Below, one piece after another: positions 44,766-62,935 of a DNA stretch of 64,000 bases (position 1 is the stretch's first letter; every line of letters begins with the position of its first letter). The notes beneath the pieces were generated by a model. That model was given only the letters and a program-made list of their open reading frames with translations, did not search any database and was not told the origin of the DNA. The stretch spans positions 310,001 through 374,000 of the forward strand of contig NTMA01000007.1 of NCBI GenBank assembly GCA_002917075.1, read 5' to 3'. This DNA comes from Hawksworthiomyces lignivorus. Taxonomy: Eukaryota > Ascomycota > Sordariomycetes > Ophiostomatales > Ophiostomataceae. Position numbers and translations under genes: made by a program.

Positions 44766-47700
44766 TTAGCACATGAGCTGTGCCTCCTGTGGCTTGCCCC
44801 AGCCGCCACCACCCGGCGTGATGATGTGCAGCTGCTCGCCGCGCGCCAGATGCACAATGCCCTTGGCGCCCACGTTGACAAACTGCTGCTGGCCGCTCGG
44901 ATGGATGAGCCGGGCCAGGTTTAGTCCCGGCTGACCAGGCTCGCCGCCCGCCATGCCGTACGGCCGGTTGACACGACGATCCGTGTTAAGTGTGAACGTC
45001 ATCTTGCAGCGCGCCTCGTGCACACGGATGGCGCCGTCACCGCCGGGGTGTAAGCCCCGGCCGCCCGAGCCGTGGCGGATGCCAAACTGCCGGACCAGCA
45101 CAGGGATGCGCTTCTCAAGGACCTCTAGGTCAGTGGCGCGCGTGTTGGTCATGTTCTAACAGCAATGCGTTAGCGGTGGTACGCAACAGCGCAAACTGCG
45201 GGAGGTGTCGTGCGTCGAGTAACAAAACGACAAAGACAGTTCTGCTCGCAAAAGGAGACCAAAAAAACATACCGTGTGGATGGCAGAGACACCGCTCCAG
45301 GTCGGGCCCGCGCCACTGCCGCCGCAGATCGTCTCGCCATAGATGAACGCGTAGCCGGCAAACTTGGTGCTACCTGCCGCTCCCGCCGCTTTCTCGGGCG
45401 CCTCCTTGGCGCCACCATACATCTGGATGCCGTTTAGCGTGCCCTGGCTGGCCGCGCATGCCTCAAAAGCCTTGAGAATCACGTCCGTGATACGGCTGCT
45501 GGTCGTCGAGTTGCCGGCAAAGACAGCCGCGCCGCGGGTCGGCGAGATCAGCGTGCCTTCAGGCACAACAATGTCGATCGGGTTGAGACAGCCTTGGTTC
45601 AGCGGAATGTCCTCATTGATGAGGCATCGTAGCACATAGAGGATAGCAGACCGCGTCAGGCTGGGCGGCGCGTTGTAATTGCCGTACGTCTGGTAGGTCG
45701 TGCCGGTAAAGTCAAACGTCGCGGCGCCTGTCGTGCCGTCGATGGCGATGCGCAGGTGAATCTGCGTGCCGTCGTCCAGCATGTCCACCGCCGCCAGCGG
45801 CGCCCCTTCCCGCTCTTTGGCGATCTTCTTCAGGAACGTCCGTACCGCGCTCTCAGCGTTCGTCTGGATCGCCGCCATGTACCGCTGCACGGTCGCAGCG
45901 CCGTACTCGGCGAACAGCTCGTTGATGAGGTTGACGCCGCGCTGGTTGGCCGCCACCTGTGCCTTGAGGTCGGACAGGTTCTCGTCGACGCTGTTGGAGC
46001 CCGTGCAGCCGGGATACTTGGCAGGCTCCTCGACAAAGATCCGGCGGACACCTGACCATACAATTAGAATAATGTCTTGCAGAGAGGGATGCCACAACTG
46101 TCTTTCTTACCTTCTTCGTCAAAGATGCCTTGGGACACCAGCTTGAAGGAGTCAATGACGGCTCCCTCCTGCTCTAGATACGTGCACCGCGGGTTGCCCG
46201 AGATGCCGTCGAGACCACCAATGTCACGATGATGGCCTCGAGCTGCCGTGTAAAAGATGATGTTCTTTCCATCTGCGTCAAAAACGGGAGAAACGACAGT
46301 AAGATCTGGCAAATGCGTTCCGCCAGCCGCTTTTATCACACGTCAGTTAGCTCTGACCATGTCAATGCAAAGGCAGAAATGGTGTCACGTACTAGGGCTG
46401 TTTGTGAGAAGGACATCGCCCGGCTTGAGCTTTCCAGCGTGGAGGTTGTGCTGATACTTCACAGCATGTTGCATGCTTCCTAGGTGGACGGGAACATGGG
46501 GTGCTACATATGGTTAGCAATGTGAACAATGTCTCAAATAAGTAAATTTTACGTACCATTGGCAACAAGGTCGCCATCAGGGCCAAAGACGGCGCAGCTG
46601 AAGTCCAGGCGTTCCTTGATATTCAAGCTGACGCTCGTCTTTTGCAGCGTGAGCCCCATCTGCTCGGCGATGCTCATAAACCGGTGGCCGAAGATGGACA
46701 GGTGAATGGGGTCGATGATGTCCGGCCGCACAACTCTCGTCTTGGCACCTCCGACGCGAATGATGATCTTGCGATCGAGCTTAATTGCGCGGTCGCGTGG
46801 GGCGATCAATATGGTCTGCGTATTGTCTAAGATAATAGCTGGGCCCTGATACTGTTAGCAAATGCTGACCAAGTTGTGACCTTTCATATCTTACCAGGAC
46901 GTGATTGTAGACTTCGAGATCCTCGAGCCGGTAGACTGCGGTCGGCAGGCGGCCCAATCCCTCGAAGAAGACGGGCGTCGTGTTGTGCGCAGCAGAAGCG
47001 CTGACCAGTGATCCAACTTTGTCTGCAGTGGACAGCGCCTTCGAGATGCTGACTTCTTCGATGACAAACGGATCTCGGGCAACGCCACGGACGCGGACGT
47101 CGTCGACGAGGATCGGTCGGCCAGGGACGTGGAAAGAAAATTCCGTGATATGTCTTTTACAGAATGCCGCCTCGAAATCACCGTCGGCCGGCTCCGAAAT
47201 CATGAGAGACGTCGTCGTGCCCTTGTAGCGCAAGTTCAGGTATCTCTCAAAGTGTAGATGGCTGTCGGAAAATCCCTGTTTTCTCAAGTTCCGTGCAACT
47301 TCGCCCTGTAACGCCTGGAGCTTTTTCACCAGCGTTGGCATCGAGTCCTTCGACAGGGTCTCCGAGCAGGGCTCTTGGCTCTCGTGCACAACATCCGCCA
47401 AGGCCATGCCGTATGCTGAGAGAATAGACGAGTACTGGTGAATTAAGACTTCGTGGATGTTCAAAATTTGAGCAATAGAACTGGCGTGTTGGCCTCCTGC
47501 GCCGCCAAAAGCGGCAAGCCGATGGTTTTCGGCGTCATAGCCCTTGCCCTCCGTGAGGGACCGAATAGGCCGGCACATTGCTTCATTGGCCACATTCAAG
47601 AACCTGAATTATCTTTTCTTAGTCTCTCTTTGGAATCATTAAGCAGATAAATTTTGCGCTTTAAAAACATACCCAATTGCAACTTCTTCGGGGGTTAGAG

Positions 47701-49270
47701 TATTTCCTGTCTCCTCATTGATCTGAGCGGCAAGGGCGTTGAACTTCTCCTTGACAATTTCGGAATCCAACGGCATATCTGCAGATGGCCCAAAGATCTT
47801 TGGAAAGAAATCAGGAAGCAGCCGCCCAAGGAACAAGTTGGCGTCTGTGACCGTGAGCGGTCCGCCCTTGCGATAGCACGCTGGGCCGGGGTGAGCGCCG
47901 GCACTCTCGGGACCGACGACGAACAGTCCGTTCTTCCAGAACAGGATCGAACCACCACCAGCAGCCACAGTCTTGATGTCCAACTGGGGAGACTGGATCG
48001 TGATACCTGCTGTAGTCGTCTCAAAAACGTGGTCATACTTGCCAGCATAGCGAGAAACGTCAGTGCTCGTTCCGCCCATGTCAAACCCAATAATCGGCTT
48101 GCCATCTTCGGCGTCGTACGACGTTTTGGCAAAGCCAACAAGGCCACCTGCCGGGCCAGAGAGGATAGATCGAAGACCAGAAAGCAGCCTGAAGTCAACC
48201 AGACCGCCGTCCGACTGCATGAACTGGCACTTGGTCTGGCTGTTGTCGGCGAGACCACCAGCGAAGCCTTTGCGGAAATTTTCCACGTATTCTTTCATAA
48301 CGGGAGTAAGATACGCGTCGGCCGTCGCGGACATTCCTCTTGGCACCATCTTGATCATAGGTGTGAGCTGCGAGGACAAGGAAATGTGTTTGAAGCCAAT
48401 TTCCTGTGCGATACTGTTGATACGCAGCTCGTGGTCCGGAAATGTGTAGGAGTGTGCCAAGCACACTGCAATGGATCGATACCCCTCTGCGTACAGATCC
48501 TTTAGAGATTTCTCAACGCTCGCCTCATCTTTGACATATCATTAGCGTTAATGCGAAGCAGACTACGAAATAGTATGTTGCTTTGGCAGACTTACCAAGT
48601 GGTTCTAGAATCCGTATAACATCACCACTTAGTCCACGGACAGTGGTACCGATGTCGCGATCTTCCGCGTGCGGGTGATCAATCGACACACGCTCGTCGA
48701 CTTCCACGCACTTTTCATATAGCACATCAGCCTTCTTGATGTGTAGGTCAAATAGTTTATCACGGGTTTGGTGACCGATCTGTAAAGCCTCTCCAAAGCC
48801 TCTGGTAATCAGAAGGGCACTCTTTGCGCCCTTCCGCTCAAGCAGGGCATTCGTAGCCACAGTGGTACCCATGCGGATAGTAGCTATATGGATTAGCGTT
48901 CGTTGATCTTGGAATGACATCAGATCAGGCCATCATACCAATCTTTGAAGTATCCAAGGGCTCATGGCGAGGCAAGGTTTGACCTGTTACTGTCTCTAGG
49001 ATACGGCGAATTCCTTCTGTAGGTGCATCCTCGTAGTTGTCTGGGTCCACAGATAAGAGCTTGACGACAACATCCTTTTGTCCTGGTACAACACCGATAC
49101 AGTCACAGAATGTTCCACCACGGTCTGTTTGATTGTGTTAGAATGGAAAGGCCTTGAAAGCCATAGATAACCTTTTAAAAAAAAAATACAGAAAGAAAAC
49201 ATGAGAGCATACCGATGTAGACACGTAGACGGTCATCTGATACCGCGTTATTGAGATCTATACTGCCCAT
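44766..49270 (-). CDS. 5-oxoprolinase / hydantoinase A+B fusion (ATP-hydrolysing)
   Basis: Ten exons: 49270-49213, 49124-48939, 48883-48596, 48528-47673, 47603-46895, 46845-46557, 46503-46393, 46329-46111, 46051-45273 and 45155-44766; 1294 aa, the usual length. HyuA-N starts with DRGGTFCDC (the phosphate loop, usually DxGGTFTD), then [16 protein letters not shown]. HyuA has [14 protein letters not shown] and AAGGGS. HyuB starts near residue 737 ([20 protein letters not shown]) and includes [23 protein letters not shown] and a C-terminal PGGGGWGKP. The enzyme opens 5-oxo-L-proline or a related cyclic amide using ATP. It is divergent from the MmgE/PrpD gene and likely part of a catabolic cluster, so it could be a paralogue of the glutathione-cycle enzyme with another substrate. 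Confidence 0.95.
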
Positions 49271-49524: not shown

Positions 49525-49539
49525 TGGCGGTCGAGGCCG
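49525..49539 (+). promoter_or_regulatory. Candidate cluster regulatory element (CGG-N6-CCG), copy 1
   Basis: TGGCGGTCGAGGCCG. It lies 255-270 bp upstream of the 5-oxoprolinase start and about 557 bp upstream of the MmgE/PrpD start. The same 15 bases occur on the minus strand at 54045-54059. CGG-N6-CCG is the spacing bound by Ppr1 and UaY zinc-cluster dimers. Confidence 0.6.
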
Positions 49540-50095
49540 ACAAAAGCGGAGGACAGCGCCAGGTGGCTACGTTAGGAGGAATCGACAGCGATTGTTCTGT
49601 ATTATCGTTTGTAATAGCTGAAACTGCGTTTTGACATTTGATTGCATGCGGACGGCTGCGTCAGAGCTTTTTTGCCACTGTCCCTGTCCGTCGGTTCACG
49701 GTGTCGCAGCCCCGTCGCCTGGTTCTGCACGACTCTGCAGATGCGGAACGATAGCGGAAACCATCCATGCACAGCTGCTTCGAGTGTACTTACACGACAG
49801 TGAGTGGATAAGAGATGCTTGTTGAAAGGAGGGGAAAAAAAGGAAAGAGTGAGGTACCAGATGCTCTGTCCATGCGGTATCTAGCGTATTAACGAACACT
49901 TAATTTCCGTCTCATACTTGCTAACAAGACACAAGGCCCTGAAGGAGAAAAGTATCGCAGGAGCAGGTAAAATTCGTTTGGCACCATATAATCACTTATT
50001 CGGCAAGCCATCTTATCTGTCATTGTGTCTCGACCCAGCACGCTTCATCTCCAGAACCCTTCGTCAAGAGTTACTGTCATCCTCCTAGTGACGCC

Positions 50096-51475
50096 ATGTC
50101 TAGTACGACTCAACAATCTGGCGCTACGTACCGCATGGCAGAATGGGCGGCAACTCTGCCTCGCGAACGAAGCCTATCGGCTCGATCTGATGCCCAGAGA
50201 GGAATCACAGACCTCCTCTGCTGCATGATCGGGGGCTCTGCAGAGCCCGTCCCTAAGCGCGTAGCCCAAGTGGCGTTGTCGTTCGGCGGATCTGGGCCGT
50301 GCACGATGGTTGGCTCTAGCACAAGAGTCTCGGCGGCAGCAGCAGCGTTCGCCAACGGTGCTGCTGCGCACATTCTGGATTTTGACGACTCCTTCCGCCC
50401 GCTGACCGGCCACCCGTCCTGCACAATCGTTCCTGCGATTCTCGCCGTGGCCGAAGAGCATCATGCGTCCGGTGATGATCTGCTCGACGCCTATGTCGTC
50501 GGCATCGAGATCAGCGCCGCGATCGGCCGCGCCGCTCCAAAGCACCACGATGTCGGCTGGCACGGGACTGCCACCGTGGGCGTCATAGCAGCGGCGGTCG
50601 CCTGTGCGCGGCTCCTCCGGCTGGACACAACGGGTGTTGTGAACGCCATTAGTATGGCTGTGAGCTCGGCCAGCGGCAGCCGCATGCAGATCGGCTACGA
50701 CATCAAATGCATCCAGCCGGGTGCAGCTGCGCGCGATGCAGTCATCGCAGCCTATCTCGCCAAAGCCGACATCCACGGAAACCCCGAGGTCCTGAGCGGA
50801 AAATGGGGCTGGTCTAAGCTATACGCTGGCGTCGACGGTGACGGGAGCGAGTATACTTTTCCTGGACCCGACGAGGCGCTTGCCATTGTCGATCCCGGCA
50901 TCACCTACAAGCCCTATCCCACCTGTGGCAGCACGCACCGGACTCTCAATGCCGTTCTAGATATGTGCAATAAGCATGACATTCTAGCTAGCAACGTCAA
51001 GAGCATCGAGACGATCATTCCGTTTCTTAACACGCAAAATCTCCGGTACAACAGACCAGCAAGCGGCATGCAAGCTCGGTTCAGCATGCCGTACACGTGT
51101 GCTCTAGCTGTCCTATTTCGCCAAATCCGCCTGAGTGATTTCGAGGACGCTGCTATTACAAGACCCGAAGTGCAGGAATTTATGCCAAAAGTATCGATGG
51201 TCTCACTGCCTGGAAGTGAGCATACAGACAAAACATACCTGGAGATGCCCTGCTATACAAAAATCACGCTTCTTTCAGGGGAGGTCTACGAGGATGAACG
51301 GTACGATCGCCGGGGCGAGTCTACGCAGCCTCTTACAGCTGCTGAGGAGCAGTTTAAGTTTGAAGATTGCACCAAGGGTGTATTGCACCCGAGTCAAATG
51401 AAGCAACTTCTTGGACTTTTGAGCGACTTGGGCAGCGTATCAGATATTGGAACTTTGGCTGATCTGTTGAGATAG
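50096..51475 (+). CDS. MmgE/PrpD family protein
   Basis: Single exon, 459 aa, full length for the family. Family marks: an early helical domain (MAEWAATLPRERSL), a loop with FANGAAAHILDFDDSFRPLTGHPSCTIVPAILAVAEE (the conserved D-x-DD and GHP elements), AVSSASGSR, and KPYPTCGSTHRTLNAVL (conserved cysteine and histidine region). Members act on tricarboxylic or imino-dicarboxylic acids: 2-methylcitrate dehydratase, cis-aconitate decarboxylase, iminodisuccinate epimerase. Which reaction applies cannot be read from sequence. No targeting signal is clear at either end, so it is probably cytosolic. It is divergent from the 5-oxoprolinase gene, converges on the flavin oxidase gene and is a likely cluster member. 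Confidence 0.9.
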   Translation: MSSTTQQSGATYRMAEWAATLPRERSLSARSDAQRGITDLLCCMIGGSAEPVPKRVAQVALSFGGSGPCTMVGSSTRVSAAAAAFANGAAAHILDFDDSFRPLTGHPSCTIVPAILAVAEEHHASGDDLLDAYVVGIEISAAIGRAAPKHHDVGWHGTATVGVIAAAVACARLLRLDTTGVVNAISMAVSSASGSRMQIGYDIKCIQPGAAARDAVIAAYLAKADIHGNPEVLSGKWGWSKLYAGVDGDGSEYTFPGPDEALAIVDPGITYKPYPTCGSTHRTLNAVLDMCNKHDILASNVKSIETIIPFLNTQNLRYNRPASGMQARFSMPYTCALAVLFRQIRLSDFEDAAITRPEVQEFMPKVSMVSLPGSEHTDKTYLEMPCYTKITLLSGEVYEDERYDRRGESTQPLTAAEEQFKFEDCTKGVLHPSQMKQLLGLLSDLGSVSDIGTLADLLR

Positions 51476-52180
51476 CGAGTATCTGAATTCCTTGCAGACC
51501 CTTCGGGAATTCCAGTAAAAGAGAAACTGTAATGACTCTGCATTAATAGAGCTTTACTGATGCACCCAGCTGCTGAGATACTCAAGAAATCGCTAAAAGC
51601 GCTTGCTGTACCTTGACGTGTAGCCATGACGCAGGGATTTCGGAATATTTGTTACCAGCTTTGAAATTAGCACCGTCTACACTTAGTCATGAAGGTTCTA
51701 CGCGTGAGACCGTTTTCAAGTCTACTGTTGAGTAATAAGATATTGTTACATGTGTCTAAGGGGATTAATCCTTTTTGTACTAGTACAGTGGCCTAATGGC
51801 ATTAATCAACATCTACAAGTTCAAGTGTGATGAAAAGCCGAGACAAAAATAAGGAGCAAAAAAATTAGAAGCCACTTGGTGGGAAACCCGTTACGAGCGC
51901 GTTTGATAGAGTTAGCTATAGTCTTGCTAGAAATCTAACTCGCTCAAATTGAATCAAGTGTTATTATCTGCTGAGACCGCCCATAACGTGAGACTCGTCT
52001 GTTAGCTCTGTTCCTACAAATTTGAAAACTGATTTCCTACGTTGAGACATGTAGACAAGCACTTCAAGTGTCTGATATCTCTCAATTTGAGGTCTCTTAT
52101 ACTCTTGGCCATGTTTGTCTTTCTCAGCCGGCCGGCATCAAAGACGTTCGACTACACCAGCTGAAGTTAAACCTGTTCCC
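51476..52180. other. Convergent intergenic region
   Basis: 3' flanks of the MmgE/PrpD gene and the flavin oxidase gene. No gene seen. Confidence 0.6.
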
Positions 52181-53703
52181 TTATAGATGGCTCCGCACAA
52201 CATCGCTAAGTTCCTCTGGATCGCCATCCATTCTGGGTGCATTGAGATCTTTGCCAGCGCTGGACTTTTCGAATGCCCATTTCTTAACCAACTCTGACGA
52301 CAGTGTTCCCTCTATGGAATCCACGACCAGGTCACCAATAATAGGCAAAAATTTCCAAGCATGAGCAGAGCCACCAGTAGCCAGATGGATGCCCGGGACC
52401 TGTGGGTGAGGTGCTACGAGAAAGTCTGCTGTCGGCGTCGTACAGATCCTATAAAGTCGGAGTGTGTGTTTAGCTTTAGTGTGACATTATGAAAGGAGAA
52501 TGGTGGGTCAAAAACTATTCTAAGATTTGGCATACCAGCATATCTTTGTGCGGTCAAAAGGTCTGTCCGCCAGAGGAGGCATAATTTCCTTGAGATTGGC
52601 TCTGAGGGCGAGCTCCGCCTCGAGAGGAATCTCATCGGAGGGATTGCTGACGATCGTTCTGGGGTACGAAATTTCAATTTTCTCTCCAGGGCGCTCAGGG
52701 TGCCTAACTGACACTGTGTTGACATAGCCCGGGGAACGGCGCAATATTTTGATCTCGCCACGGTACGGGGGGAACATATTGAGGCCTGTGCTGAGGTTCG
52801 TCGTGATAGACATTTTCCCCCAGCGACGCTCCTCTTCGGGAGTGATTTTGATCCAGGCAACTTCGTGGCCGATGGGATTGACCCGCTGCGCCAGGTAGAC
52901 TAGCCGGTTCGACCAGCAGCCAGCTGCAACGACGACTTTTTCGGCGTGCAGCACGTTTCCGTCTTCCAGCTGGACGCCTCTGCAGACGCCGTCAGACGCA
53001 TCAATCAGAAGCTGCTCCACGGCCACGCCGCATCGAAACTGGATCGACGGCAGCGCACAACAGCGCTCGTAGTATACTCGAATGCATGCTTCAGCGTCAA
53101 TAAAGGCGTCGTCAATGTTGCAATAGGCCTTGTTCCATCTTGATTTGCCGCCTGGGAGGACTGTCTCCTGCGGTGGCTGTGCGTCTTGGCCGTGTATGCG
53201 CTGGAAGACCGCTTCACGAGACGGCATCTCAACGATGTCGCTAGGCGGATGAAGAGAGGTTGTCAACTTGTACTGCGCCTTCCAGAGCTCTGTAAAGCGG
53301 CTAGGCTCTCCATCGCAAGCAAACGTCATGCCCTGCTTGAAGTAATACTTCCGCAGGTCAGGATCGCTTTCGATCTGCTTCTGGGCCTCTTTGGCGAGAC
53401 GGGCATAGATCGGGTCGGCATAGTCTATACAGACCGGTGTTAGTTGCCATCATCAACCCCATAAGCAAAAGGCCTCCTTTGCATCCCGAGGAACGTACCA
53501 GCTCGAATACACCGAGTTGTGTCCACACTGCTGCCATCAGCTACAGGAGGTGTCAGGCGATCAACGACTGTCACTGAAGTGAGGGGGTAGCGTTTGGCAA
53601 CAGCTAGGGCAGTAGAAAGACCGAATACCCCGGCACCAACAATAATAAGGCTTTTGGGGAAGTCTAGGCCATTTTGGCCAGCAGGCTTTTGATTAGAGCT
53701 CAT
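52181..53703 (-). CDS. DAO-type FAD amine oxidase (amadoriase/sarcosine-oxidase-like), peroxisomal
   Basis: Exons 53703-53499, 53424-52536 and 52448-52181; 453 aa. The dinucleotide fold shows GAGVFG at residues 23-28, then a second conserved strand ([12 protein letters not shown]). Across intron 2 the protein reads [15 protein letters not shown]; in amadoriases and monomeric sarcosine oxidases a cysteine in this region holds FAD covalently. [16 protein letters not shown] is the second flavin-contact loop typical of the family. The protein ends in SHL, a good type 1 peroxisome signal, which fits an enzyme that makes H2O2. It oxidises a secondary amine of an amino acid (fructosyl, N-methyl, pipecolate or similar). 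The third exon is needed for both the flavin loop and the peroxisome signal. It is divergent from the permease gene. Confidence 0.9.
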
Positions 53704-53990
53704 TTCTGAGCTTCGGAAGATAGGATAAGATGCTTGTTGATTTCTCAGATTGGCTTACACACAAAAAGGGCTAGAAGGCGAGTCGATAGGAAAAGTGAGA
53801 TAGCCTCAAGCTTATACGCGGCCGTATGCTGTCTATAAAGTTCGATTTGCAGTAAACCAGAGCCGACAAACCTGTTGTACAAGTTGGTGATCCACCGCTG
53901 GCACTAGTCGAATATCCATTGACAGGTGATTTTGTTTGATACCAGCACGGCTGCTTGGTGGCGACCCCACACAGTCCTTTAGTGCAGAAG

Positions 53991-54002
53991 CGGATGACGC
54001 CG
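53991..54002. promoter_or_regulatory. CGG-N6-CCG element, second site in this promoter
   Basis: CGGATGACGCCG, 42 bp before the shared element. Same half-sites and spacing, different centre. Confidence 0.5.
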
Positions 54003-54044
54003 ACAGTATACGACGCTGTGCTACCCAGGATTTTGGAAACTGAG

Positions 54045-54059
54045 CGGCCTCGACCGCCA
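54045..54059 (-). promoter_or_regulatory. Candidate cluster regulatory element (CGG-N6-CCG), copy 2
   Basis: On the minus strand it reads TGGCGGTCGAGGCCG, identical to 49525-49539. It lies about 342 bp upstream of the oxidase start and about 220 bp upstream of the permease start. Confidence 0.6.
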
Positions 54060-54275
54060 ACCCCAGACTTCCCCATCACGGTCAGTTGATAAGCACAACA
54101 GCTATCTCTGGAGCCTTTCGCCAAGATCCTCTCTCCGCGTCGTCTCCGTGGTCGATGGATTTGTTGAAAAGCATGGGACGTTCCAGAGAAAAAATTCTCA
54201 TGGTCTCGGGAATAACAAACACGCCACTCATCTCTGGAACCAACTGCTACAATCCATCACCTCTAGGGACTAAGG

Positions 54276-56578
54276 ATGCAACACGAGACCGACAAAGAGA
54301 AGGCGGCGACCGCAACCGCGATGGGGAAGCCAGACGACATCAGCATCGCCGAAGTCCTCGATGCGGAGACTGAGCATCAGGCCCACCTCGGCGTCGAGGA
54401 GCAGGCTACTCCAGAAGAGCTGGAAAAAGAGCGGAAGCTGGTCCGCAAAATCGACCTGCACATAGTCCCTCTGCTCATGATCACCTATGGTATGCAGGTA
54501 TGGTCATTATAGTCCCTAGAACAAGAATACCAGACTCTTGTCGCGTGCATGGCCGTTTTCTGACGCATTTTTATCAACACAGTATTCGGACAAGATCACC
54601 CTCTCGTCTGCGGTTGCGTTTGACCTCAAGCAGGACACGCATCTGGTCGGAAATGACTTTGCATGGCTATCTACCGGGTTGTAAGTTGACATTGTTGGCC
54701 GGCCGCATCCGCCAAGTGACGATCGATTCTGACTGTGAACCCAGCTATCTGGCGTACCTCGTCGCTGAATTTCCCTTCGGCTATGTCATGCAAAAATTTC
54801 GCATGGAGAAGGTTTTAGCTGTCACAGTGATTGGATGGGGCGTCTGCGTCTTCTGCCTGGCTGCGTGTAAAAACTTCACTCAACGTAAGATAGCCAAACA
54901 AACTTATCACTCTAGTAGACTGTCGACCTATTGTTGGTTCTAATCAAATTATGACATCTACAGTTATGGCAATTCGAACACTCCTTGGCATTCTCGAGGC
55001 CCCTATCAGCCCCGGCTTTCTCATCATCGTCACGGCTTGGTACAAAAGAGAAGAGCAAGTGATGAGGTCCATGGCATTCTTGTAAGTTGACGGAGAAATT
55101 GAGTATCTGGAAAAATGCGGCCGTCTAACGCAAAAGACAGTGCAATGAACAGTTTCTTCAGCTTGTTTATTCTGATGATCAATTACGGCATTGGTTCGGC
55201 CGCTGTCGGTTCTAAAATCGCTCCCTGGAAGGCGATTCACTGTACGTTGATTTGCACATTAGACATATGCATATGAGACTCCCGCTGATCGAATTTCGTT
55301 AGTGTTCCTTGGAGCGCTATCTACTGTCTGGGGCTGCATCCTTGCATGGAGGTTATGTGTCCCACGGACTGCTTCTTGGCTCACAGATGAGGTACGTTGA
55401 TCTCGCGTACCACAGAATATGGGAAACTCTGAAGCTGACTTCACCGCAAAGGAGAGATCGTTTGCACACGCCCGCTTGGTGAAAAATCAAGCTGGAGAGT
55501 CAACATCTGGCCTTAAGTTCAAGTGGCACCAAGCATGGGAGTGTTTGCGAGACCCGCAGATCTTTTTTATTTCTGCGTTCACGCTTCTGCAATCTTCCGC
55601 TTCGGGAGGTAAGCGAGATGGACGAACCCCTTTAACACGTTTGTGGCTTTGAGAACCTCTTGCTGACCTTCATCAGGCTTCTCGACTTTCTCAACTATCA
55701 TTCTCCAGTCGTTCGGTCTTGATACAAAAGATACAATCGAGTACCAGCTTCCGTGGTACTCCTTTCAGTTCATTGTACGCAAGAACCCTCCTGCGCTTCA
55801 AATTCCATACGAAACGAAGGACATAATCAAGTTGCTGACATAGCTTCAGGGAGTCATTATTCTGGCTTGGACAATTAACAGATACGCACACAAGGTAAAT
55901 CCACAGCAGGCCATAACAGTACTTTATAGCTATTATGCTAACGACTAATGCAATCGTTCAGAATCTCAACATCATAATTGCCTTCATCATGCTGTGTCCT
56001 GCAATGATTGGCATCTTGCTCGAAGCTCTCCTCACAAACACACATAGATGGGGCCGATTGGTGAGTTCCTCGTATTTTGTGGTCAAGCACATATCAAAAC
56101 TAATGCTCACATTGTCTACTCATTTAGGCTGGATTCTGGATTACTGGCTTCTACACGCCGGCTTCGTTCATCGTATGGTCGACAACTGGTCTCAACGTAG
56201 CAGGGCGGACCAAGAAATCAGTAGCACAGGCTATCATATTTTCTTGCTTTTGTGCTGGGTTCTGCATTGGCCCGCAGACGTTCTATGCCAGCTCGGCGCC
56301 TTCATACAAGCCCGGTCTCTACTTCTGCTGTGCGTGCTTCTTCATGACAGAAGTTGTTCTTGCTACCTGGTTCTTCTGGGTCCGTTGGGAAAACAAGAGG
56401 CGCGACAGACAAGTTGCCGCGACGGGAATGACAAAGGAGCAGCAGAACATGGAGGGCTGTCTTCTCGGGCTTCAAGACGCGACTGACAGAGAGGTACGTT
56501 CAGGACGATCCGGCCTTTCTCTGAGAGCTGCATTGCTAATTTCTCTTGCAGAATATACATTTCCGGTATCGCTACTAG
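54276..56578 (+). CDS. MFS permease, Dal5/allantoate (anion:cation symporter) family
   Basis: Twelve exons: 54276-54497, 54583-54680, 54745-54884, 54964-55081, 55141-55241, 55303-55391, 55452-55608, 55677-55774, 55850-55894, 55962-56060, 56128-56493 and 56552-56578; 519 aa. The N-terminal tail ends in LVRKIDLHIVPLLMITYGMQYSDK, a hallmark of this family. Other marks are TGFYLAYLVAEFPFGYVMQKF, GILEAPISPGFLIIVTAWYKREEQ and the C-terminal ENIHFRYRY. Members import allantoate, ureidosuccinate, dipeptides, nicotinate or other organic anions with protons at the plasma membrane. A terminal exon of nine codons completes the family ending. It probably brings in the cluster substrate. A second in-frame ATG is 14 codons downstream. 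Confidence 0.95.
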
Positions 56579-56791: not shown

Positions 56792-59132
56792 CTATAGCTC
56801 CCAATCCCATACATATGGCAGTGTCTGAATATTACCATTAAATGATTCCCAGTCGAGCAATACTTGTCCTGCTGTAGAATTCAGTCCCGCGTTTTCCAGA
56901 TTGACAGGGAGCATCAGTCCCGTGTCCATCGGCGCAAAGCCTCGGTCGTGGCCCATTCCGTCATCGTGGGCTGACACACTGTCCCCTCTAGATGATGACA
57001 AATGATCAAATGCGGTGTCTGCTGAAAAATGAGAAGGGCCTTGAATGTCGGCTCCATCTGATACCTCCGTATTTTGGCTGCTTTCTATGCTGACCGCCAG
57101 AGCCGTTGCAATATTCAGACTCGAGCTTGGCGCGTTAGTGTCTTGCAGCTGGCTGAGGTTCGCCATCGTTTGTGAAGCCACCGAGTCGAATTCATCTCGC
57201 TTTTCCTTGAAAGCCGGAAAGCGCTCCACCATTCCCCAGAGAACCGTCGAAGTGGTGTATAAGAGCCTCTCGAGATCCTGACGGGAAAATTTGCCTCGGA
57301 CAGTCGCGGAGTGAAAATAGCAATATATTAACGCAGTGCCGGCATTAAAGAGATTTTCAATGGCTTGCCAGAACAAGCGAAGCTTATTAGCGCGGAAAAA
57401 TCGGCGGTATAGGTTGATCAGATAGGCGGAAGAGTGTGCCAGCGCCACCATCGCCTCTGGTGTGGGCGTGGGAATATTGGGCGAAGGACGGTAGACGTAA
57501 AGCAGGGCCCGTTGGAACGTCAGCTCAAGCACTTCTGGGGGGGCAATGTTGCTTGTATGTTCTCCCAGCGATCGGATTCTACAAATCCGGTGGTACCAAT
57601 TTTTAAGCCTCTCAGCCATGCCAGTCTGCCACCTCACGTAATCGAGCGGCTGGTACATTGGCGGCGTCTTCTCGTGAAGGACCGTATACATTTCTGATTG
57701 CAACCGTCGATAGTCAAACCAGTAATGTGTGTACCTCTTTTTGCTAATTTCTGGATTCGCAGCTTCCAGAATACCATTTTCAGCAATGCACTCGTCATCT
57801 GCGAGGCTCGGGTACTTTGTAGTATGTAAGCACTGGTTGCACGCCATGACGGATGTTGATAGGGCAGACATACCTGTGCCGTGATTATGCCATCTGACAA
57901 GCATGGGGGCCTCCCTGTCGCGACGGATACATTCCGGTCCATCGAGTAGGCAACCCAGAACGTCCGGCGCATAATGTCTAGTGTAACACAGCCCACCGTT
58001 CCTAGCGGAGGGTCTCTGTGCAAGCCCAGCTCCACTGAAAGCCGGAGCGCCGATCCGATCATATTCCAACCGCGGAAATCTGTCGGGTGGAGATACGCGT
58101 ATTGTGCCAGCAACAACAAGGCCTGGACACCTTCGATGTCATGGGGGAGAGTTGTTTTGCTCAGTGCAACTAGGGCCGTTTGATAATATCGGTCACAGAG
58201 CAGAGTTGGTACGTTAGACGGGTCGTGTTTCTGCATCGTGATCAATCCAAGGGCGAAGACCATGTTGACGAAGTACAGTGTGAAATTGAATGTGCTCTGC
58301 TGAGACTGACTGGGCCTAGACGTAGACAGAGAAGGCTGGTCCTCCCTTGTATCTGAATAGACTCTATCCAGCTTAGAGCGAAAGCTCGGCTCGTGTAGCA
58401 GCGGCGAGCTGAAATTAGAATATTCAAAGTAAGCCTTGACGAAAAACTCAGCTTTGTCTCTCGTGGGCAGCGCATTGGATGGCAGCTCCAGCCCGTCTGT
58501 TAGAGAGGAAAGGATCTGGTCCGAGTCTCGAGGAGCTCGACGGTCCCAGAGAGGTTCAAGAAACGGATCTCCGTCGAGCCCCATCAGCTTTGAAAAAGGC
58601 AATGACGAGAAAGCAGGCCGAGAATTAGAAGAACGCCGCCGAGGCAACCGGCGGCTTTCATCTGCCAGGCCAGAATCTGTGGTTGGGCAGTCCAAAGCAC
58701 TGCCAGGACTGACATCTACCAAGCCCCTGCCTTCCTGCAGCTGGATCTCCAGCTGAGCGACTCGCTCTTCCAAGTGAAGCACATAGCTAATTGTAAGGTA
58801 GTTAGTTAATAAGACTCATATTTCGAGACGCACGGTGTTGATTTGGACGGATCAAACCTCCTTGGGATCTCTCTTTTGGCAATAGCGTCATATCCGACGC
58901 ATTCAACGCCTGCCGCTTCACATAATGAGCAAGCCTATGTAGGTCAGACGTCAATGAGAAATAAGCTAATATGACATGAAAGAGAGACAGGCGAGAAGAA
59001 TGGCCGACGCACCGGTAATTTCTGGTCGCATCTCTTCTTCCTCTGACGGCAACGGATGCATGCCGTGATGTTTGATCGGGCAAGGGGGGCGGGTCGTTCA
59101 TGAGAATCGGCTGACAAGCTTGGATTTGCCAT
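56792..59132 (-). CDS. Zn2Cys6 transcription factor with fungal_trans domain, candidate cluster regulator
   Basis: Exons 59132-59013, 58934-58858, 58786-57874 and 57814-56792; 710 aa. The zinc cluster is split by intron 1: C25-x2-C28-x6-C35-x6-C42-x2-C45-x6-C52. A coiled-coil follows across intron 2 (YVLHLEERVAQLEIQLQ), normal for dimerising zinc-cluster proteins. The middle homology region has DFRGWNMIGSALRLSVELGLHRD, DIMRRTFWVAYSMDRNVSVATGRPP and the usual downstream helices. It is last in the 44.8-59.1 kb cluster and convergent with the permease. A dimer could bind the CGG-N6-CCG elements in the two divergent promoters; that link is inference. I see no copy of the 15-bp word in its own upstream DNA. 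Confidence 0.92.
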
Positions 59133-61144
59133 TTCTTTTCTCTAGGATACCTCAAAGCGCTGGATCTTATCTCCAGCGAGTTTATTGGAATAATACTAGA
59201 TTGATGGGCAGTGAAGCTCGGACGGGGAAGTCAATCTCAACCTAGATATGGAACTATATTCTTCCGCTTCGCCCTTGTCTTATCTTTTGAGGGGGCTTTG
59301 AGGGGGCTTGCAGAAGTCAGTCGATAGTTCAGTAACTAACCACTGATAGAAGTAGTAGCCCCAGACAGTAGCTTGGTCGCGTGGACTTGAATGTCTCTAG
59401 TGCGGTCTTTGTAAACCTGGCCTCCTTAGGGGCCACATGTTGGTGTTACTTTAGTAGACAGAACACCGCTGTAACTTAGCCTCTAGGGGCAAATTTAGAA
59501 ACCACTCGTACGCCACACATAACGACAGGGAGATTAATGTTTTTGCCATATGTTTCCTTTCTTGTAATATCGTTTGTTAGCGAGAAGAAAGGAACAGCTC
59601 ACCCATAGTGTCGTGAATGTAGCAGAACAAAGCATCATGTTTAGTGGACTACATCACAAAGTTTCCTAGTAAAAAAGTTTAACCGTGATATTCTAAGTGA
59701 ATCACTAAAGTGGCGAAAAAATACTATACGTTGGGCAAGGCTACCAGCAAAAGCAATGGTTCCGGTTTTTGTCGATGAGAAGCCTCATTATATTCTTTAA
59801 TATTTAAATTCAAGTACAGCGCCCATCAATATCATGCAGTCCGTGTATAAATCATTTGTGTTCTGTAAGACGTTTCGAAGCTTGAGGCACCCACCGACTT
59901 GATAAATTGTATAAAGCAATCTCTTATTAGATAAAGCCATAGATGTTGTTATAGGCATGAGAAACCCGAATTCGAATAAAACGCACCGCATGGCAGTTTC
60001 CAGCATGCAAAGAGAGTAGCAGGACGGCAGATCTCGGGAGAACTCTGCAATCACTCTCACTAGAACACCAACTTTCCATATCGAGATGCAAGATATCAGC
60101 GAAACAAGGACAGTGAAAGTCAGCTACATACGTTGTCGTATAACGTTTGCTACTACATTATACAGATTATGCATAGTTATATTGGACTCCAGGCCAGGTG
60201 CCGTCTTTCCGGCCTCCCCCCTGAACTGCAGCCTTGTATAAGTCCAAAATGAGGAACGGCCTACCGGTACCACAGCCAATATTGACGTCTTGGCTCAAAC
60301 TCTCCAATCAAAAACTCCACAAGTCCCGTATATGCATTTCGAGCTGGCAAAATATTTCTCATTTGGGGCAAGTTTCTGTCCAAGGTAGAAGAGATAATAC
60401 TACACTACGCAGGGACCTCTGTGTGTACCTACTCGCTCTCCTTTTTATTCTTTCTATGATTTCTTTTGAGCACTCCACAAACATTATGCTTAACCTAGAA
60501 CAGACACCTTGAAAGTGTCTGATCTGGTGAATCCGTGTCTTGGACCAGCAAAGCCAGGTGTGAGTTTAAGTTGGCACGTTCTGGTCTTGTCAATAATGTA
60601 GCAGACGACACACCACGCACACAATACTGCAGGCTCTAAAAAGTACCTAAACAATCCATCCCAGAGCCTTAGTTGTTCACATAGCTGCTTCTTAGGTTGA
60701 CAGAGGACTGATTGAGGACTGATTGAGAACTAACAATTCCTTTGATGGGTATCTACATCTTGCCAAGTCAAGCTGCTTGCACCACACTGAATTGGATCTT
60801 GGCAAAGGACACAGCTACTTCGAGATTCCACCATTAAGGGCTGGCAGGGATGACATAGAATAAATAATGAAAATTAAATCCCTAACTAGAAAAATCTCTC
60901 GGGATTTTATTAAGATCTACCATATATTTCTAGAGGTGCCAATGCCTTGTTTTCATTCGTATAGTTCTTATCTCCATCTCGTGTCTTCTCTGTTTTGCTG
61001 GTGTCTCTATCTCCTATTCATCTGTCAGTTTGCAGACTCCTAATCCTTGTCGATATCTGCATTTTGTTCTTTACAACTTATACATGCCGCAATCTATAGG
61101 AACAGCACTGGGTCAAAAGATAAAAGAAAAATAGGGTTGCAATC
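59133..61144. other. Divergent intergenic region
   Basis: About 2 kb between the regulator and the secreted-protein gene. AT-rich; short frames (for example the 87-aa minus frame at 59797-60060) have no support. No repeat of note. Confidence 0.5.
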
Positions 61145-62029: not shown

Positions 62030-62479
62030 TCACATCGGCGATGCCCGATTAGCTAGCACCACCCGGTATCCGTCCGGGTCCTCAAACGTCTTGCCGCACT
62101 GGTCCCAATAAGGGTTGAATGCAGCTACGGGCGGAAATCCGGCGTCGACCAGGCGGTCGACAGCAGTCTGGAAAGTAGCCGTGTCGGGTAGATAGAACAC
62201 GAGCAGGTTGTCTTGGGTGGGAGCGCGGCCGGCGTCATGGCCGCGCTTGGTGGTGAATTCTAGGTGGTAGGGGGCTTGCGCCGCCGGCGAAGTGGCGCCT
62301 CCCGCGCCAGAAGGGGAATCCTGCTTCGGAAACCCTAGCATCAACCCGTCGAACCCTTCGTGCTCGCCGAACCGGAATAGCTCGGTAAAGCCGAGGCCAT
62401 CGCGGTAGAACGGCAGCAGCGCGTCCAAGTTGTTAGTCGGACGCGCGATGCGGAGGTGGGCGCCAGCGAGGAGGGACAT
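62030..62479 (-). CDS. VOC-fold (glyoxalase/bleomycin-resistance-like) protein
   Basis: Single exon, 149 aa, the length of a one-module-pair VOC protein. It starts AHLRIARPTNNLDALLPFYRDGLGF, the classic first strand and helix. Later come YHLEFTTK and FEDPDGYRVVLAN, the closing strand. Likely metal ligands are the histidine at the start and that of YHLEFT; the final acid of glyoxalase I (usually a Glu in the last strand) is not obvious, so metal use and activity are uncertain. A Gly/Ala/Pro insert (residues about 56-70) lies before YHLEF. Members include isomerases, dioxygenases and resistance proteins; the role here is open. Confidence 0.88.
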   Translation of the reverse strand: MSLLAGAHLRIARPTNNLDALLPFYRDGLGFTELFRFGEHEGFDGLMLGFPKQDSPSGAGGATSPAAQAPYHLEFTTKRGHDAGRAPTQDNLLVFYLPDTATFQTAVDRLVDAGFPPVAAFNPYWDQCGKTFEDPDGYRVVLANRASPM

Positions 62480-62935
62480 TGCTTTATTTTATCCAGCAAG
62501 GAATAGAGAACAGACGGTTGCGGCTTCGGTGGCTCAGCTTTCTTTCTGGCTTTCTACTGTTGAGCGAAAAAAAGAAAAAGAAAAAGAAAAAGGAGAGGAC
62601 GATGATAGACTCAGTTGTCGCATTCCTCGTAAAAAGAGAACAGCGGAGTCATCGGAGTTTCGATTTCTCTCCACATCGACGTCAAAACTTGGCATGCTGG
62701 TTGGGGTACACAAATCATTGCGTAAAATAAACTGCGGTACTGAGAAACATGCAGTTCATCATATTATCCTTGTTCTGCAACCAATGCAAAACAAAAGTCT
62801 AGTTCTTGATGACATTTCTATATGTACATGCAAAAATGCCGATAATGCAAAATGCGCCGTGGTGCTTTTTATGCCACCATACCGTATCATGACCCTCTCT
62901 TCTCAAATCAATGCTACACAATCTTCATCACTTCT
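62480..62935. other. Intergenic region, VOC promoter / TRM61 3' flank
   Basis: It contains an AAAAAG simple repeat at about 62565-62592. No gene seen. Confidence 0.6.

What the first reader, a model, noticed from the sequence alone, without database searches (positions are those of the whole stretch)
49525..54059. Identical 15-bp word in both divergent promoters of the cluster
TGGCGGTCGAGGCCG occurs at 49525-49539 (plus) and 54045-54059 (minus). Its core is CGG-N6-CCG, the spacing recognised by Ppr1 and UaY dimers. A chance match of 15 bases between these 825-bp and 572-bp regions in either orientation is about 0.001 by simple arithmetic. A Zn2Cys6 gene with a coiled-coil sits in the same cluster. 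This ties the four enzyme/transport genes into one regulon.
Basis: partly seen in the sequence, partly recalled or inferred. Interest (0 to 1): 0.78.

Follow-up and report, generated by a model that had tools for sequence, protein, structure and literature searches.

The report
Shared regulator-binding site in fungal cluster
Two back-to-back promoters in a fungal nutrient-degradation gene cluster share a rare DNA word that looks like the landing site of the cluster's own Ppr1/UaY-type regulator, and similar sites recur beside a sister copy of that regulator elsewhere in the genome.

Summary
Confirmed. The 15-mer lies at 49525 (+) and 54045 (-), in divergent intergenic regions of 825 and 572 bp. 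It occurs once more in the 43.7-Mb genome, inside an open frame. Sharing a 15-mer happens in 3 of 2016 non-coding pairs. A second word, AGATGCTTGTTGA, found nowhere else, is shared too.

The working unit is probably the dimer site GCGG-N6-CCG[AC]C: one in promoter 1, two in promoter 2. The cluster's Zn2Cys6 protein aligns without gaps to PPR1 through zinc cluster and linker. Best evidence: a regulator paralog (about 42%) divergent from an oxoprolinase paralog (about 70%) on C121 has three CGG-N6-CCG sites between them, none at N4, N5, N7 or N8. Regulator and FAD-oxidase relatives carry consecutive locus tags in three other fungi.

Against: an oxoprolinase/MmgE pair on C19 has no N6 site; the site is not enriched genome-wide; regulator and MmgE relatives are not linked elsewhere (0 of 42). 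Orthologous promoters could not be read; binding is untested; a UaY-like protein is the main rival binder. An ordinary kind of system, uncharacterised pathway.

The parts
49525..49539 (+). 15-mer copy 1, TGGCGGTCGAGGCCG; dimer core CGG-TCGAGG-CCG 49528-49539, extended GCGG-N6-CCGACA 49527-49542
54045..54059 (-). 15-mer copy 2; dimer core 54045-54056, on + strand GCGG-CCTCGA-CCGCC
53991..54002 (+). second CGG-N6-CCG in promoter 2 (CGGATGACGCCG), flanks as in copy 1: GCGG-N6-CCGACA 53990-54005
49806..49825 (+). second shared word with GATA site, GGATAAGAGATGCTTGTTGA
   Evidence: 13-mer has 2 exact genomic copies, both here; alignment
53723..53740 (+). second shared word with GATA site, GGATAAGATGCTTGTTGA, about 20 bp upstream of the FAD oxidase ATG
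50004..50017 (-). partial third copy of the GATA-linked block (GATAAGATGGCTTG)
   Evidence: local alignment; score within the shuffle range, weak on its own
54088..54093 (+). GATAAG site beside 15-mer copy 2 (TGATAA at 54087)
44766..49270 (-). oxoprolinase / N-methylhydantoinase-type HyuA-HyuB fusion, 1294 aa, 10 exons, intact in the model
   Evidence: gene model; Pfam; PDB
50096..51475 (+). MmgE/PrpD-family protein, 459 aa, single exon; best solved relative iminodisuccinate (IDS) epimerase
52181..53703 (-). FAD amine oxidase of the fructosyl-amino-acid / sarcosine / pipecolate oxidase family, 453 aa, 3 exons
54276..56578 (+). MFS transporter, 521 aa, 12 exons
56792..59132 (-). Zn2Cys6 + Fungal_trans regulator, 710 aa, 4 exons, PPR1-class DNA-binding domain and linker

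Best explanation
The word is a binding site for a homodimer of a Ppr1/UaY-class Zn2Cys6 activator, most likely the product of the regulator gene 56792-59132. Sites of the form GCGG-N6-CCG[AC]C sit in both divergent promoters (one in promoter 1, two in promoter 2) and switch on the oxoprolinase, MmgE/PrpD, FAD oxidase and MFS genes together when a pathway metabolite is present. GATAAG sites beside them probably make the response depend on a nitrogen-state GATA factor (AreA type). Shown by sequence: sites, spacing preference, class of the DNA-binding domain, open gene models, recurrence at a paralogous regulator/oxoprolinase promoter. Inferred: binding, inducer, co-regulation, nitrogen control.
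For: Word rare: 3 exact in 43.7 Mb, 2 here, 1 inside an open frame. CGG-N6-CCG: 3 in promoters 1+2 against 0.131 expected from 9 in 95.6 kb of non-coding-like sequence. Regulator best matches PPR1, gap-free through the linker; 11 aligned relatives keep this domain, consensus CIRCRQKKKRCDQKLPKCRLC..AGVEC.GYDAVA.RQVPRSYV.SLEERVAYLE. Paralogous test: the C121 intergenic region (regulator paralog about 42%, oxoprolinase paralog 67-70% by tblastn) has three CGG-N6-CCG, all GGCGG-N6-CCG[AC]C, none at N4, N5, N7 or N8. Over promoters 1, 2 and C121 there are 6 N6 sites: 0 of 2000 shuffles reach 6 (mean 0.285), 1 of 2000 has at least one in each region, 2 of 2000 reach 6 at any spacing 0-20 in any orientation, and 1 of 2000 reaches 3 in the C121 region alone. 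Positive control: the uricase locus has TCGG-CGGGCT-CCGA as its only N6 inverted pair. Linkage: regulator and FAD oxidase relatives have consecutive locus tags in Scytalidium lignicola, Cyphellophora europaea and Capronia coronata; 12 of 50 regulator relatives share a contig length with one of the 120 listed (of 402) FAD relatives, 7 of these 12 on contigs under 0.5 Mb. GATAAG: 4 in promoters 1+2 against 0.58 expected.
Against: No binding or expression data. No genome-wide enrichment of the 1-mismatch word (36 against control 35) or of GCGG-N6-CCGACA (112 against reversed control 167; N7 spacing 126 against 150). The divergent oxoprolinase/MmgE paralog pair on C19 has no N6 site in its 550 bp, only one N5 and one N7. 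No CGG-N6-CCG in 59130-60200 upstream of the regulator. Contig sharing is weak where contigs are large: the Fusarium solani-melongenae pair is 119 locus tags apart, and Thyridium 6 apart. C121 was examined because it held the closest regulator paralog; its oxoprolinase was found afterwards, and the [AC]C flank was fitted after seeing the sites. Identity of all six spacer bases in the two word copies is not required by the model.
Confidence: 0.72

Rival explanations
1. The site is real, but is bound mainly by another Ppr1/UaY-class protein of the same genome: the UaY-like regulator on C125 or the regulator paralog on C121.
For: The DNA-binding domain on C125 is 67% identical to the cluster regulator over residues 20-68 and has the same kind of linker start, GYDPITKREIPR; the uricase promoter has the same spacing; the C121 paralog's promoter has the same sites.
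Against: The one uricase site is TCGG-N6-CCGA, the six cluster and C121 sites are GCGG-N6-CCG[AC]C; the regulator gene lies in the cluster and its relatives lie next to FAD oxidase genes in three other fungi.
Confidence: 0.13
2. The shared 15-mer and 13-mer are chance or relics of small local copying, without regulatory meaning.
For: 15-mers shared by chance are not vanishingly rare (3 of 2016, 72 of 43956 pairs); the word family is not enriched; the GATA-linked block differs between copies only by a GA insertion, as a copied stretch would.
Against: The two words lie in opposite relative orientation in the two regions, so they are not one duplicated block; an extra N6 site in promoter 2 and three in the C121 region have different spacer bases; 0 of 2000 shuffles reach six N6 sites.
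Confidence: 0.12
3. A different factor reads the whole 15-mer, including the spacer, and the resemblance to CGG-N6-CCG is incidental.
For: All 15 bases are identical, more than a CGG dimer needs.
Against: The only other 15-mer copy is in an open frame; the related sites vary in the spacer and keep the CGG/CCG triplets.
Confidence: 0.03

Closest known systems
S. cerevisiae Ppr1 and its CGG-N6-CCG site (structure 1PYI)
   Same: Zinc cluster, linker and start of the coiled coil align without gaps over 62 residues; inverted CGG/CCG with six bases between.
   Different: Controls pyrimidine genes in yeast (recalled; the PDB entry calls it pyrimidine pathway regulator 1); here a four-gene degradation cluster with its own regulator gene.
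Aspergillus nidulans UaY with AreA (purine use)
   Same: Same class of DNA-binding domain and spacing (recalled); GATA sites nearby. This genome has its own UaY-like gene on C125 and a uricase promoter with TCGG-N6-CCGA.
   Different: Flanks differ: GCGG-N6-CCG[AC]C here, TCGG-N6-CCGA at uricase; target genes differ.
A. nidulans hxn (nicotinate) clusters, PMC8478523 (passages read)
   Same: Catabolic cluster with divergent gene pairs, shared bidirectional promoters, a specific regulator gene inside and AreA HGATAR sites.
   Different: HxnR is a Cys2/His2 regulator (abstract of PMC5746545 in the listing) with predicted GHGGGG sites; enzymes unrelated.
Bacterial HyuA-HyuB-MmgE-lyase gene row, Sphingomonas MAG (L025)
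   Same: MFS, HyuA, HyuB and an MmgE 50% identical to the fungal one in a row.
   Different: LysR regulator; an argininosuccinate-lyase-family enzyme where the fungus has an FAD oxidase. HyuA and HyuB are only about 30% identical; seen in 1 of 3 genome loci read and 0 of 2 plasmid regions.

Membership tests
Ppr1/UaY-class Zn2Cys6 regulator (protein 56792-59132) | Six-cysteine zinc cluster plus Fungal_trans domain | tested here: met
   Pfam Zn_clus 5.6e-11 and Fungal_trans 4.6e-30
Ppr1/UaY-class Zn2Cys6 regulator (protein 56792-59132) | Ppr1-length linker leading into a coiled coil, which sets the N6 spacing | tested here: met
   gap-free alignment to 1pyi chain A, query residues 22-83, best of 15 PDB sequences at E up to 1; linker layout kept in 11 aligned relatives with small variations
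Ppr1/UaY-class Zn2Cys6 regulator (protein 56792-59132) | CGG-N6-CCG in target promoters, in excess over other spacings | tested here: met
   promoters 1, 2 and C121: 6 at N6, at most 2 at any other inverted spacing 0-20. Not seen upstream of the regulator itself or in the C19 pair
Ppr1/UaY-class Zn2Cys6 regulator (protein 56792-59132) | Binds CGG-N6-CCG as a homodimer | not testable with these tools
   needs EMSA or DAP-seq
UaY ortholog itself | Closest regulator to UaY in its genome | tested here: inconclusive
   A separate UaY-like gene exists on C125 with a longer open frame, so the cluster regulator is probably not UaY; no A. nidulans UaY sequence was compared
Nitrogen-controlled (AreA-type GATA) catabolic cluster | Excess of GATA sites in the promoters | tested here: met
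   GATAAG 4 against 0.58 expected; HGATAR 3.64 and 8.74 per kb against 2.60 background
Nitrogen-controlled (AreA-type GATA) catabolic cluster | Ammonium repression and GATA-factor dependence | not testable with these tools
   needs expression data
Iminodisuccinate epimerase (MmgE protein) | Epimerises N-substituted aspartates | not testable with these tools
   best PDB match is IDS-epimerase 2hp0, 8.9e-56; homology does not fix the substrate

The most novel reading that the evidence does not exclude
The cluster encodes an undescribed fungal pathway for ring-shaped or N-substituted acidic amino acids (lactam, hydantoin or Amadori-like): the oxoprolinase-type enzyme opens the ring, the MmgE/PrpD protein epimerises the product, and the FAD oxidase splits the C-N bond, replacing the lyase of an analogous bacterial operon; one Ppr1-class regulator, duplicated with an oxoprolinase elsewhere in the genome, controls it through GCGG-N6-CCG[AC]C.
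Probability: 0.3. Interest if true: 0.6.

Novelty: new member of a known kind. Interest (0 to 1): 0.42.

Why it matters
It gives a concrete, testable regulator-site pair for an uncharacterised fungal degradation cluster, with a natural replicate (the C121 paralog pair) and a natural contrast (the C19 pair without an N6 site) in one genome. That allows the flank preference of a Ppr1/UaY-class regulator to be separated from that of UaY itself, and points to a substrate class to try as inducer. The HyuAB-MmgE association, seen also in one bacterial gene row, hints at a pathway that recurs across kingdoms.

Tried and rejected
Rejected: that the 15-mer is frequent. That the two promoters are one duplicated block: the two shared words have opposite relative orientation. 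That the motif marks a large regulon: no genome-wide excess of GCGG-N6-CCGACA.

Led nowhere or gave less than hoped: orthologous promoters. The collection of genomes that I could scan holds bacteria and archaea only (search for related loci gave 3 bacterial loci); metagenome scans were capped at 0; viral contigs were not scanned. The plasmid search gave MmgE places in 568 records; the two regions read show no oxoprolinase. Literature: no held paper with UaY + CGG-N6-CCG or with UaY + TCGG + purine + Aspergillus nidulans; the one paper with 5-oxoprolinase + fructosyl amino acid oxidase + gene cluster + fungal (PMC8709101) was seen only as a listing; one search gave one paper (PMC5559640). IDS-epimerase papers were seen as listings. 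Passages only were read of PMC8478523, PMC5559640 and PMC7347537.

Labels from memory, from no call: the UaY consensus TCGG-N6-CCGA and uricase as a UaY target, the name UaY-like for the C125 gene, Ppr1's role, M3 peptidase for the frame around the third word site, glyoxalase for the frame at 62030.
Full report
What is there. The window lies in a 43.7-Mb genome (contig C159), fungal by its intron-bearing genes and nearest relatives. Five genes with open models were spliced from sequence alone: an oxoprolinase/N-methylhydantoinase-type fusion (44766-49270, -), an MmgE/PrpD protein (50096-51475, +), an FAD amine oxidase (52181-53703, -), an MFS transporter (54276-56578, +) and a Zn2Cys6 regulator (56792-59132, -). 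Domains. Closest solved relatives: N-methylhydantoinase and 5-oxoprolinase, IDS epimerase, fructosyl peptide/amine oxidases, D-galactonate transporter, weakly.

The word. TGGCGGTCGAGGCCG is at both stated places. Genome-wide it occurs 3 times, the reversed control 0 times; the third copy is in an open frame of 282 codons stop to stop. Allowing one mismatch gives 36 matches against 35 for the reversed control, so only the exact word stands out. In a control of 64 non-coding-like runs (200 kb of ten other contigs plus the rest of the window), 3 of 2016 pairs shared a non-simple word of 15 or more, and none of those also had a second word of 13 or more; among 43956 pairs of 825-bp tiles of all kinds, 72 and 12 did.

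A second word. AGATGCTTGTTGA is in both regions and has no other exact copy in the genome. Aligned with its flanks it is GGATAA(GA)GATGCTTGTTGA, so each copy carries a GATA site. Its orientation relative to the first word differs between the regions, which speaks against one duplicated block. In local alignment the two words score 30 and 29; the best of 200 shuffled pairs scored 29, so each alone is at the edge of chance. GATAAG occurs 4 times in the two regions, 0.58 expected.

The unit. CGG-N6-CCG occurs once in promoter 1 and twice in promoter 2 (49528, 53991, 54045), against 0.131 expected from the local non-coding background. Copy 1 and the 53991 site share GCGG-N6-CCGACA although their spacers differ. 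That 10-base pattern has 112 genomic matches (reversed control 167; N7 version 126, control 150), so it is not enriched genome-wide; two of the matches fall in these two regions.

The regulator. Its DNA-binding domain matches PPR1 best of the solved structures found, without gaps through linker and start of the coiled coil, and 11 relatives keep the same layout. As a positive control, the genome's uricase gene (found by PF01014) has TCGG-CGGGCT-CCGA upstream, the only N6 inverted pair in that 3.3-kb locus.

The paralogous test. The closest regulator paralog (about 42%) is on C121 (only 63 of 260 candidates were scored there). Its upstream region proved to be a divergent promoter shared with an oxoprolinase paralog (67-70% identical by tblastn). 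The intergenic region, 1718 bp from ATG to ATG (the tests used 1775 bp, with the first exon), holds three CGG-N6-CCG sites, GGGCGGATGAAACCGACT, GGGCGGTCGTTTCCGCCG and GGGCGGCATTCTCCGACA, and none at N4, N5, N7 or N8. Over the three regions N6 has 6 sites; other inverted spacings 0-20 have at most 2. Of 2000 dinucleotide shuffles none reached 6 at N6, 1 had an N6 site in every region, 2 reached 6 at any spacing and orientation, and 1 reached 3 in the C121 region alone. I looked at this region because of the regulator paralog and fitted the flank pattern afterwards; both soften the numbers.

The contrary cases. A second paralogous pair, oxoprolinase (72-78% in the exons listed) divergent from MmgE (63%), lies on C19; its 550-bp promoter has no N6 site, one N5 and one N7. 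The only C19 match to the regulator's list is 27% over part of the protein. The upstream stretch 59130-60200 of the regulator has none. So of six gene regions examined for N6, four have sites (promoters 1 and 2, C121, uricase) and two do not. Other oxoprolinase paralogs listed (for example on C111, C33, C126, C118, C17, C140, C107) were not examined.

Linkage elsewhere. By locus tags, a regulator relative and an FAD oxidase relative are neighbours in Scytalidium lignicola (g2335/g2336), Cyphellophora europaea (05423/05424) and Capronia coronata (07204/07205); in Thyridium curvatum they are 6 tags apart, in Fusarium solani-melongenae 119. By equal contig length, 12 of 50 regulator relatives share a contig with one of the 120 listed FAD relatives (of 402), 7 of them on contigs under 0.5 Mb; 4 of 42 MmgE relatives share one with an FAD relative (one of these, 2480 bases, looks like a coincidence); MmgE with regulator 0 of 42. 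Equal length is an indirect sign of the same contig. In Niveomyces insectorum the MmgE and FAD orthologs (80% and 84%) go together, and the best regulator match (39%) goes with another FAD paralog (55%). The regulator is thus tied to the FAD oxidase family and, in this genome, to oxoprolinase; its tie to MmgE is seen only here.

Pathway. Of three bacterial MmgE loci, one, in a Sphingomonas MAG, has the MmgE (50% identical to the fungal one) after MFS, HyuA and HyuB genes and before an argininosuccinate-lyase-family gene, with a LysR regulator beside them; the other two loci have no oxoprolinase match, nor do the two plasmid regions read list one. The lyase passes NCBIfam's cut-off for argH, so it may simply be an arginine-synthesis gene. 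IDS degradation by an epimerase plus a C-N lyase is known in Agrobacterium (title in the reference list of PMC7347537). I infer a ring-opening, epimerisation, C-N cleavage route in the fungus, with the FAD oxidase in the lyase's place; substrate unknown.

Conclusion. The kind of system is ordinary for fungi. Three literature searches turned up no paper that I could recognise as describing this cluster, regulator or site; the one listed paper was not opened.

Noticed in passing
L045 and L038 (own genome, C121 about 61500-69700): A paralogous divergent pair, oxoprolinase and a Ppr1-class regulator, with three CGG-N6-CCG sites between them.
   Followed up: yes
L047 (own genome, C19 113500-115420): Another divergent oxoprolinase/MmgE pair (MmgE 63% identical) whose 550-bp promoter has CGG-N5-CCG and CGG-N7-CCG but no N6 site.
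   Followed up: partly
L025 2663-10884: Sphingomonas MAG gene row MFS-HyuA-HyuB-MmgE-argininosuccinate-lyase-like with a LysR gene beside it; a possible bacterial counterpart of the fungal cluster.
   Followed up: partly
L043 677-690: Uricase promoter of the same genome carries TCGGCGGGCTCCGA, the recalled UaY consensus.
   Followed up: yes
L046 1492-1507 (own genome, C54): A 16-base exact match to GCGGTCGAGGCCGACA of promoter 1, but inside a long open frame.
   Followed up: yes
window 62030-62488 (-): A 152-aa open frame that reads like a glyoxalase-fold protein (from memory); no domain search was run.
   Followed up: no
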